From NCBI GenBank assembly GCA_021604665.1, contig BQJK01000002.1, forward strand, positions 558,001 through 622,000: a stretch of DNA of 64,000 bases. Reading direction: 5' to 3'. Of the stretch, positions 19,253 through 53,250 are shown piece by piece. The notes below the pieces were generated by a model that saw only the letters and a list, made by a program, of their open reading frames with translations, ran no database searches and was not told where the DNA came from. This DNA is from Rhodomicrobium sp. (GTDB taxonomy: Bacteria; Pseudomonadota; Alphaproteobacteria; Rhizobiales; HXMU1428-3). Each line of letters opens with the position of its first letter. Positions within the stretch are counted from its first letter, which is position 1. The translations under genes were made by a program, and so were the position numbers.

Positions 19253-19440
19253 CTTTTGGGCGGAGCGTTTTACCTCGCGTTCCTTTATCCCAAAACCGGT
19301 GCCCACTTTTGGGCGGAGCGCTTTTTCCTCGCATTCCTTTACCCCAAAACCGGTACCCACTTTTGGGCGGAGCGCTTTTTCCTCGCGTTCCTTTACCCCA
19401 AAACCGGTACCCACTTTTGGGCGGAGCGCTTTTTATCTGC
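19253..19440. repeat. Three-copy 54-bp tandem repeat in the nirB-nirD spacer
   Basis: Units begin at 19253, 19306 and 19360, and a fourth partial unit starts at 19414 (periods 53, 54 and 54). Each unit carries CCAAAACCGGTACC followed by CACTTTTGGGCGG, so CCCAAAA can pair with TTTTGGG around a GGTACC core. The core resembles palindromic repeats common between genes in rhizobia. The period is a multiple of three, so the frame upstream of nirD stays open by chance. Confidence 0.85.
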
Positions 19441-22388: not shown

Positions 22389-22404
22389 TGGCACAAGGAT
22401 TGCT
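22389..22404 (+). promoter_or_regulatory. Sigma-54 promoter for the nitrate transporter
   Basis: TGGCAC-AAGGA-TTGCT is an exact match to the -24/-12 consensus. It lies about 90 bp before the transporter ATG and points away from the nirB promoter. The 220 bp between the two promoters, AT-rich and with scattered GTGCA/TGCAC half-sites, is where activator sites would be expected. Confidence 0.78.
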
Positions 22405-42800: not shown

Positions 42801-42997
42801 ACCCGAAAATTACGCCAGATGCCAAGGGCCTGCTGGAGAACAACCCAGAGGCTATCAAAAACACGGTCGATAACGTCAAGAAAGTTGTGAAAGACCTCAA
42901 GAAGAAGAAGATCTCCAGCGAGGAGATGAAGGGCCTTCTAAACGGCATGCTTGGCGGTGATGGCGACACGAAAAATCTTGAAAAGATTTTCCAGTAA
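39827..42997 (+). CDS. AsmA-family protein with N-terminal GYF-like domain
   Basis: A 1056-residue protein. Residues 1-55 form a GYF_2 domain (WYIARDGKQYGPMSDEELATLV, LWRQGFENWLPAG). Residues about 60-310 are a disordered, Gln/His/Asp-rich linker. A single membrane segment follows at about 329-351. The remaining 700 residues are an AsmA-type periplasmic beta-groove (FKGKMSYRFFPSFGLDLNNI near the membrane, C-terminal LNGTGKFIVVDGALEGVNI). AsmA-like proteins carry phospholipids to the outer membrane. The GYF domain would face the cytoplasm. Just after the stop codon begins the tandem structured repeat. Confidence 0.88.
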   Translation: MQNQWYIARDGKQYGPMSDEELATLVRTRDLLDGDYLWRQGFENWLPAGQVPEVRGFANFAAGAPVMQPEQTIARDQQAALAHELSQQNTPQDARHQTQQDPAARQMAEGARTMAEGVHQRLGGMMNAAFNQGDGRAQNGDSRMNGEMRGPEDQRAQRSQGFSGQPGYAASDYSPAEADAAHGADHLQAHTQHNPETAYGTNQPERGEEQHHLPAHHALHEDDPSLDDRGEDIHDLVEDDDAALIDPYSAQLDASAQMDASYAGNAIVQEDYGRASDGFNGSLGGIGHRHGNDDLSSIEGGAFAAYGRNRPTASLETSEEASAGRGRISWPLAAGIGIAALFILIVGATFALPFIVPPETIKRQISAALKEQTGRDVSFKGKMSYRFFPSFGLDLNNIIIHNPPEIKGPDFLSIGRLQADLSLFPLLSKRVEIERVALHRPEIMLINAGNGRTNYDFKTAAYQRLIPLSKGVRVAQAGTIDTGDIIARTLEKLEREEAEKNKAKNGGDKATSDADLKPDNSASGPDVNEKIVKTSTGKGDAIQVGEVEIVNGLVKFIDQKANSETELSAINLTLTAPAADKDVTAVGTVRFKEDRININAQLSTLGPLLEGEVFDSAIQMNSDRFEGKFTGKMKLGDRLQYKGDADIQTFSMKNLLSWFGVDVPKQGYGGAYIRGLLAGQTDEFTLKNATIKFDQTTLIGTLRLRQEAMRPRLDAILSTDSLNLSPYLSQPNEIRRGALDNGRRTAVAAWSSDRLDVSFLNSFDGDVKLTAGRLTALGHPIEKGTVQVKVNSGLMTASIPSFQLYSGTGSLNVTLNGAKPRAGLKGRVALNKVNIKPLLVNAAGLDWISGNADVVFDVTSAGSSEREIIAGLNGTGKFIVVDGALEGVNIPGMVRNLQSGNLLASSGKPSEKTDFSELSATFNIERGIVSNKDLLMKGPLLRLSGEGTINLPTEQIDYGLKPKLVSSLDGQGGASDLSGINIPLRVKGPLANPKITPDAKGLLENNPEAIKNTVDNVKKVVKDLKKKKISSEEMKGLLNGMLGGDGDTKNLEKIFQ

Positions 42998-42999
42998 TA

Positions 43000-43137
43000 T
43001 CTCTCACGGCTATTACAGGCGCAGGGCGCCTGTGCCTCCGAGGGGCGGCGCTAGGCGCCGGGCGCGCTTGCGCTTGCCATGTTCGCAAGCCTATCGGCTT
43101 GCTGCCTTCTTCGGTAGGTAAGATTTGGGAGTCTATT
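43000..43137 (+). repeat. Structured dispersed repeat, copy A
   Basis: The backbone order is TCTCTCACGGC, hairpin 1 (CAGGCGC/GCGCCTG, 43016-43032), GCCTCCGAGGGG, hairpin 2 (CGGCGC/GCGCCG, 43046-43060), a GC-rich hairpin 3, GCCATGT, hairpin 4 (GCAAGCC/GGCTTGC, 43085-43102) and CCTTCTTCGG. It starts within 3 bp of the AsmA stop. See copies at 43138, 47613, 52925 and 53079. Confidence 0.9.
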
Positions 43138-43275
43138 TCTCTCACGGCTATTACAGACGCAGGGCGTCTGTGCCTCCGAGGGGCGGCGCTAAGCGCCGGG
43201 CGCGCTTGCGCTTGCCATGTTCGCAAGCCTATCGGCTTGCTGCCTTCTTCGGTAGGTGAGATTTGGGAGTCTATC
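43138..43275 (+). repeat. Structured dispersed repeat, copy B (tandem)
   Basis: It is 138 bp after copy A and nearly identical. Hairpin 1 differs at one position in each arm (CAGACGC/GCGTCTG), a compensatory change that keeps the pair. Confidence 0.9.
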
Positions 43276-43320
43276 TCTCTCACGGCCATTACAGTCACAG
43301 GATGCCTGTGCTGAGGGGTT
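43276..43320 (+). repeat. Structured dispersed repeat, truncated third copy
   Basis: It begins in phase with the 138-bp period, keeps TCTCTCACGGC and a decayed hairpin 1 (CACAGG/CCTGTG), then loses the rest after GAGGGG. Confidence 0.75.
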
Positions 43321-52924: not shown

Positions 52925-53056
52925 TCTCTCACGGCTATTCCAAGCGCTAGGCGCTTGGGCCTCCGAGGGGCGGCGTAAAACGCCGGGCGCCGCTCGCGCG
53001 GGACGCCATGTCACCCTATACTAACGCACTCGCGTCAGTATAGGGTTCCTTCTTCG
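52925..53056 (+). repeat. Structured dispersed repeat, copy D
   Basis: The same backbone as copies A-C. Hairpin 1 is CCAAGCGC/GCGCTTGG (52940-52958), hairpin 2 CGGCGT/ACGCCG (52971-52985), and the unique hairpin 4 is ACCCTATACT/AGTATAGGGT with an inner ACGC/GCGT (53013-53046). It ends TCCTTCTTCG. Confidence 0.88.
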
Positions 53057-53078: not shown

Positions 53079-53250
53079 TCTCTCACGGCTATTCCAAGCG
53101 CTAGGCGCTTGGGCCTCCGAGGGGTCGGAAATGTTTCTTGGCGCTTTAGGTTGCCCAGCTTGCAACCGCGCTAACCCCTTGCGCCGCTCGCGCGGGACGC
53201 CATGTCACAACATCAGCTTGCGATGCCAAGCTGGTGTTGTTCCTTCTTCG
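53079..53250 (+). repeat. Structured dispersed repeat, copy E, carrying an insertion
   Basis: Hairpin 1 is identical to that of copy D. Hairpin 2 is missing, replaced by a segment at about 53125-53178 that includes the palindromic repeat at 53140-53173. Hairpin 4 is unique: ACAACATCAGCTTG/CAAGCTGGTGTTGT (53207-53240, one T-G pair). The end is TCCTTCTTCG. Confidence 0.85.

What the first reader, a model, noticed from the sequence alone, without database searches (positions are those of the whole stretch)
43000..43275. A dispersed element of four covarying hairpins on a fixed backbone
Five full copies occur in this window (43000, 43138, 47613, 52925, 53079). Outside the hairpins they are nearly identical: TCTCTCACGGC, GCCTCCGAGGGG, GCCATGT and CCTTCTTCG keep their order. 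Within hairpins the arms differ but stay paired: hairpin 1 is CAGGCGC/GCGCCTG, CAGACGC/GCGTCTG, CCAAGTGC/GCACTTGG or CCAAGCGC/GCGCTTGG, always with a 3-base loop; hairpin 2 is CGGCGC/GCGCCG, CGGGCC/GGCCCG or CGGCGT/ACGCCG, again with a 3-base loop. Paired changes across copies indicate selection for an RNA or single-stranded-DNA fold. All copies are intergenic. I know of no named family with this architecture.
Basis: seen in the sequence. Interest (0 to 1): 0.85.

Follow-up and report, generated by a model that had tools for sequence, protein, structure and literature searches.

The report
Replication-oriented hairpin-mosaic DNA repeats
A ~115-170 bp DNA repeat made of four swappable hairpins on a fixed backbone is scattered between genes of a group of Alphaproteobacteria, almost always pointing the same way relative to DNA replication, which suggests it spreads as folded single-stranded DNA at the replication fork by an unidentified machinery.

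Summary
In detail: five copies plus a truncated sixth at 43276. Arms vary but stay paired (115 copies: 95.4% of cells paired, covariation score 0.465 against 0.128 shuffled). This genome holds about 55 copies, a congener at least 150; no Rfam match. The reading 'selection for an RNA or ssDNA fold' needs changing. (1) Wobble is almost absent (19 G-T against 1965 Watson-Crick cells), favouring DNA palindromes over a selected RNA. (2) At orthologous sites in two relatives stems are mostly identical or swapped whole, so much of the covariation is exchange of hairpin modules. (3) New: copies lie on the leading-strand-identical strand (the lagging-strand template) whatever the neighbouring genes do: 26 to 0 single-orientation clusters here, 105 to 2 in a congener, the same in another family. 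Other small hairpin families, some nested in these loops, share the polarity. No IS200/REP-type (Y1) transposase is encoded here. Best reading: a non-autonomous interspersed hairpin-mosaic element spread as single-stranded DNA at the fork; mobiliser unknown. It works like REP/BIME and IS200-type elements but fails their defining tests.

The parts
43000..43113 (+). full copy 1: H1 43015-43033 (ACAGGCGC/GCGCCTGT, loop AGG), backbone GCCTCCGAGGGG 43034-43045, H2 43046-43060, H3 43061-43078, H4 43085-43102, CCTTCTTCG 43105-43113
   Evidence: sequence; R1 102.1 bits
43138..43251 (+). full copy 2, tandem to copy 1 (138-bp period), H1 ACAGACGC/GCGTCTGT
   Evidence: 101.3 bits
43276..43318 (+). truncated third tandem copy (5' end, degenerate H1, GAGGGG)
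   Evidence: 18.8 bits
47613..47745 (+). full copy 3, long H3 variant, H4 ACATCACACA/TGTGTGATGT; not seen at this place (lepA 3' end) in the relatives where the site could be read
   Evidence: (90.2 bits)
52925..53056 (+). full copy 4
   Evidence: 92.8 bits
53079..53250 (+). copy 5 with H2 interrupted by a nested secondary hairpin repeat
   Evidence: (57 bits)
53138..53173 (+). secondary hairpin repeat ('family 2', TTGGCGCTTTAGGTTGCCCAGCTTGCAACCGCGCTA) nested in H2 of copy 5

Best explanation
A non-autonomous, interspersed hairpin-mosaic DNA element. Each copy is a T-rich leader plus four palindromic modules joined by short fixed linkers. Shown: copies are on the lagging-strand-template strand regardless of genes; they expand and contract as tandem arrays; hairpins are exchanged as whole modules; smaller hairpin repeats of the same polarity sit inside their loops. 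Inferred: the active form is the element's + strand folded as single-stranded DNA in the lagging-strand template, where it is copied or inserted at T-rich sites and recombined between copies, by a factor not encoded with the element and not identified here. Retention is mainly selfish or neutral, with loss where it would sit in front of a co-oriented downstream gene.
For: Covariation. Polarity: 109 of 115 sampled copies on the T/G-rich strand; single-orientation clusters 26:0 in G000 and 105:2 in G002; third-codon-position skews balanced for gene strand confirm the leading strand in every contig group; the same in another family, G032, 10 of 10 stretches. Gene independence: upstream gene co-oriented/opposed 60/54. 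Other families share it: family 2 177:11, families 3 and 4 15:0 together; shuffled words do not (median leading fraction 0.45). Module exchange at orthologous sites: only H4 swapped at G002 C7:129915; H1 swapped with H2-H4 kept at 111086. 34 of 35 copies in G002 have different module combinations. Array length changes 3 against 2 and 4 against 1. Presence/absence between relatives. T-run at the 5' edge of families 1, 2 and 4. DNA rather than RNA.
Against: No mobilising enzyme was found. No clean empty site with a defined target or duplication was seen for the main element; most copies in G002 and G004 occupy the same sites, so insertion is not frequent now. In G018 (another family) units occur as inverted pairs without single polarity. 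Polarity could also arise by selection after unbiased insertion. The skew argument uses G- and T-richness as the leading-strand sign; ori and ter were not mapped.
Confidence: 0.6

Rival explanations
1. A structured RNA family (cis-regulatory or sRNA) transcribed from each copy, with stems held by selection on the RNA.
For: Strong covariation, stable folds, intergenic position.
Against: Wobble pairs almost absent (19 of about 1984 paired cells); orientation independent of flanking genes but locked to replication; hairpins replaced wholesale; no Rfam hit at gathering scores.
Confidence: 0.1
2. A REP/BIME- or IS200/IS605-derived element mobilised by a Y1 (HUH) transposase that has since been lost or acts from outside.
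For: Subterminal hairpins and lagging-template polarity are what IS608 and ISDra2 show (PMC6006769); mosaic arrays resemble BIMEs; low-copy relatives in the order.
Against: No Y1_Tnp in G000, G001, G002, G003, G005, G006 or G007; the two in G004 have no copy of the element within 1.5 kb, and the one inspected is flanked by its own ATTACGGTGACAG repeats; no GTAG/GTGG foot at the element ends.
Confidence: 0.2
3. No dedicated mobility: copies multiply and exchange modules by template switching of lagging-strand synthesis at hairpins and T/A-run microhomology; arm complementarity is kept by hairpin-templated correction. (A sub-version of the best explanation, without an enzyme.)
For: Explains polarity, tandem arrays, module swaps through short shared linkers, T-run edges, the lack of wobble intermediates and the lack of a transposase.
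Against: Long-range dispersal of full 115-170 bp units needs two junctions; no such event was caught in full.
Confidence: 0.3
4. A polar chromosomal signal under selection (segregation, replication restart or lagging-strand priming, in the manner of KOPS or phage G4-type ssi hairpins): orientation is functional, not mutational.
For: Near-complete polarity and up to hundreds of copies; polarity conserved in two families.
Against: Copy number varies from about 20 to over 150 within the genus and most genomes of the order show none at the cut-off; nested insertions break the hairpins; unrelated families have the same polarity; inverted pairs are tolerated.
Confidence: 0.15

Closest known systems
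REP / BIME / REPIN elements (PMC3733652, PMC3116915, PMC6006769)
   Same: Small intergenic palindromes, mosaic arrays, strand folding, preference for 3' ends of genes.
   Different: 115-170 bp with four different hairpins on fixed linkers; no GTAG/GTGG foot; no RAYT in most carriers; direct rather than inverted arrays in the genus; replication-strand polarity, which I did not find reported in the passages read.
IS200/IS605 elements and their non-autonomous derivatives (PMC6006769)
   Same: Hairpins at the element, preference for the lagging-strand template.
   Different: No tnpA in most carrier genomes, no identified target tetranucleotide or ORF.
Rhizobium-specific intergenic mosaic elements (RIME; cited in PMC2873474)
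   Same: Palindromic mosaic repeats in intergenic regions of the same order (from memory and the citation).
   Different: Sequence not compared directly; most other genomes of the order sampled here had no R1 match at E<=1e-7.
E. coli intrastrand-triplex / BoxC motif (PMC4666352)
   Same: Dispersed folded GC-rich intergenic repeats linked to rearrangement.
   Different: A single motif of about 35 nt, with no bias of strand orientation according to that paper.
Bacillus cereus bcr1 repeats (from memory)
   Same: Dispersed repeat of similar length said to have conserved secondary structure.
   Different: Different phylum; replication polarity not known to me; sequence not compared.

Membership tests
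REP/BIME | GTAG or GTGG tetranucleotide at the foot of the hairpin | tested here: not met
   Element edges are T-rich TCTCTCACGG and CTTCTTCG
REP/BIME | Cognate RAYT (Y1_Tnp) in the genome | tested here: not met
   PF01797 absent from G000 and six congeners; the search rings in control genomes
REP/BIME | Mosaic arrays of palindromic units | tested here: met
   Tandem arrays, module shuffling
IS200/IS605 derivative | Lagging-strand-template polarity | tested here: met
   (from skew; ori not mapped)
IS200/IS605 derivative | Y1 transposase gene present to act in trans | tested here: not met
IS200/IS605 derivative | Fixed target tetra/pentanucleotide 5' of the left end | tested here: inconclusive
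   Strong T preference (T at -5 in 95-97%, T at -3 in 88-93%) but no clean empty site
MITE with terminal inverted repeats | TIRs | tested here: not met
   5' TCTCTCACGG and 3' CCTTCTTCG are not inverted complements
MITE with terminal inverted repeats | Target-site duplication | tested here: inconclusive
   Presence/absence cases are complex or tandem
Structured RNA family (Rfam) | Match to a curated family | tested here: not met
   No gathering-score hit in the window; three sub-threshold hits in other stretches, far below their gathering scores
Structured RNA family (Rfam) | RNA-type covariation including G-U wobble | tested here: not met
   19 G-T against 1965 Watson-Crick cells
Structured RNA family (Rfam) | Transcription | not testable with these tools
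   No RNA data
RIME | Sequence identity to RIME1/RIME2 | not tested
   RIME sequence not at hand; only cited

The most novel reading that the evidence does not exclude
Several unrelated families of 35-170 nt hairpin repeats in Hyphomicrobiales are moved and reshuffled by one replication-coupled single-stranded-DNA process that uses no known transposase or reverse transcriptase and writes only into the lagging-strand template.
Probability: 0.3. Interest if true: 0.87.

Novelty: new variant of a known kind. Interest (0 to 1): 0.64.

Why it matters
It offers a natural record of single-stranded DNA folding at replication forks: elements with known polarity, swappable hairpins and orthologous before/after pairs. 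It cautions that strong covariation in a dispersed repeat can come from DNA module exchange rather than from RNA selection. If the missing machinery exists, it would be a new route for small elements to multiply.

Tried and rejected
Rfam at gathering scores and at permissive E-values: no match to the element. Viral contigs, phage and plasmid collections: no match. Y1, Y2 and reverse-transcriptase families as mobiliser: not shared by the carriers; the reverse transcriptases of G000 and G006 have no counterpart in G002, which has at least 150 copies. Loci of the Y1 transposases and reverse transcriptases inspected for neighbouring copies: only one weak hit, in G013 (L125, E=0.023). Clean empty sites for the main element: only tandem or complex cases. 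Artefacts recognised: a 133-aa minus-strand ORF through 42897-43298 is only the tandem array read through; a GTG start inside CCGTGAGAG probably produces the repeated -7 distances to opposed genes. Mini-triplex reading of GGC/GCC/GGGGC (three-strand repeats) considered from the sequence, not pursued.

Full report
OBSERVATION. The window is G000:C2:558001-622000, in a 2.9 Mb genome. The same-genus genome G004 has a contig of 205641 bp, the length of BQJJ01000006.1, titled MAG Methyloligella sp. DHS20C07, so the genus lies in or near the Hyphomicrobiales. One correction: hairpin 2 of the 53079 copy is interrupted by another repeat.

ANATOMY. From the aligned copies: T-rich leader; CTCTCACG; an outer stem GGC/GCC (or GAGC/GCTC, GTGC/GCAC) closing hairpin 1 with a TATT bulge; CCTCCGAGGGG; hairpin 2 (mostly 5-6 bp, 3-4-nt loop); hairpin 3 (outer GGC/GCC, inner stem short or long); ATGT; hairpin 4 (variable); CTCCTTCTTCG. 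Covariation is far above both controls: 15 of 24 pairs with two-sided changes, score 0.459 against 0.128; on 115 copies 95.4% of cells paired, 19 of 20 pairs with two-sided changes, 0.465 against 0.128, and at most 0.052 for slid structures. That second alignment was fitted to the model and so leans towards it.

DNA OR RNA. In the 115-copy alignment, leaving out one pair at the base of hairpin 1 (34 G-T cells), there are 1965 Watson-Crick, 19 G-T and 47 A-C cells. RNA helices under selection normally tolerate wobble (established knowledge); its near absence favours palindromes kept at DNA level.

SPREAD. R1 finds 55 copies at E<=0.01 in the own genome, at least 150 in G002 (the number scored), 22 to at least 112 in other congeners. 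At E<=1e-7 it finds all 8 genus members and 14 others among 249 genomes of the order, and only the own genome among 150 of the phylum, some of them of the same order (few candidates are scored per genome in such wide searches, so these are lower bounds). No phage, plasmid or viral-contig match. Units in G032 (45 hits) and G018 (65 hits), other families of the order, keep H1-CCTCCG-H2-H3-TTGTC or TTGCC-H4 but have their own 3' halves.

POLARITY. Hits share one strand within a contig. Of 115 copies in 61 sampled stretches, 109 lie on the T/G-rich strand; all six exceptions lie within about 400 bp of a co-oriented copy as inverted pairs. Third-codon-position skews averaged over plus and minus genes, which cancels coding bias, give the same leading strand for every contig group. 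Cluster counts: G000 26 same, 0 opposite, 3 mixed, 1 on an unmeasured contig; G002 105 same, 2 opposite, 3 mixed, 16 clusters on contigs without measured skew. G032: all copies in 10 stretches agree. G018 differs: inverted pairs dominate. Flanking genes do not explain it: the upstream gene is co-oriented in 60 and opposed in 54 cases; the downstream gene is opposed in 79 of 114, as expected if copies in front of a promoter are lost. The + strand of the element is therefore the strand exposed as lagging-strand template (inference from skew; ori not mapped).

OTHER FAMILIES. A second repeat, CTTYAG-GTTGC-CCAC(N)-GCAAC-CGC with GATGC/GCATC versions, is on the leading strand 177 times against 11; two further families 15 to 0 together. 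Shuffled words of the same composition show no such bias (medians 0.45 and 0.43; the high outliers of the second set include the word itself and pieces of the repeat). Families 1, 2 and 4 have a T-run just 5'. Families 2 and 4 occur inside the loops of the main element.

EVOLUTION AT ORTHOLOGOUS SITES. G002:C7 and G004:C6 align at 80-95% identity over most of their length. Most copies are at the same sites. Differences are: array length (three copies against two, four against one); hairpin 4 alone replaced at G002 C7:129915; hairpin 1 and its backbone replaced with the rest kept at 111086; hairpins 1, 3 and 4 replaced at 22400; nested hairpin repeats present in one species only at 105946, 124589 and 152447. 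In the seven pairs scored automatically, modules were mostly identical, changed in the loop only, or replaced. In G002, 34 of 35 copies carry different H1/H2/H4 combinations. At the lepA 3' end only the window genome showed a copy among the relatives whose site could be read. Other presence/absence cases are tandem or complex.

MOBILISER. Y1_Tnp is absent from the own genome and from G001-G003 and G005-G007; G004 has two, neither near a copy of the element, one inspected and flanked by its own repeats. RVT_1 occurs once each in G000 and G006 only; Y2_Tnp only as a partial match in G004.

MECHANISM. Shown: mosaic structure, polarity, array change, module exchange, nesting. Inferred: the folded + strand in the lagging-strand template is the substrate. 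Two concrete versions remain: a trans-acting ssDNA enzyme not recognised here, or template switching of lagging-strand synthesis at hairpins and T/A runs. The second needs no enzyme and explains wholesale swaps, the lack of wobble intermediates and T-run edges, but long-range dispersal was not caught.

COMPARISON. REP and BIME repeats and IS200/IS605 derivatives are the closest models (PMC3733652, PMC3116915, PMC6006769); the latter insert into and excise from the lagging-strand template. Their defining foot sequence and transposase were tested and not met, so this is filed as working like them, not as a member. The E. coli triplex repeat has no strand bias (PMC4666352). Paper searches for a described replication-oriented hairpin repeat in this order gave nothing, which is weak evidence since most subscription journals are missing.

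Noticed in passing
window 19469, 36585, 36623, 53144 (+): Second small hairpin repeat (CTTYAGGTTGCCCAC..GCAACCG); all window copies on the + strand; 177:11 on the leading strand over the sampled stretches.
   Followed up: partly
window 19274-19440 (+): Tandem array of a third repeat, CCAAAACCGGTRCCCACTTTTGGGCGGAGCGCTTTTT, also on the leading strand only (7:0 in sampled stretches).
   Followed up: partly
L132, L166, L173, L184, L243, L244: Fourth repeat GCGATCAGCTTWTCCGTRCTCGC..GGGCTGATC after a T-run, often nested in hairpin 2; one clean ~63-bp presence/absence between G002 C5 and G004 C15.
   Followed up: partly
G018 (L200, L202, L214, L218): In another family of the order the same kind of unit is arranged as head-to-head inverted pairs and loses single polarity.
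   Followed up: partly
L119 (G004:C1 about 15 kb): RAYT-like Y1 transposase flanked by ATTACGGTGACAG repeats, apparently a separate REP system.
   Followed up: no
G000:C2:542686-543117 (L130), just outside the window: A 530-aa ORF with a reverse-transcriptase domain, not shared by most congeners.
   Followed up: no
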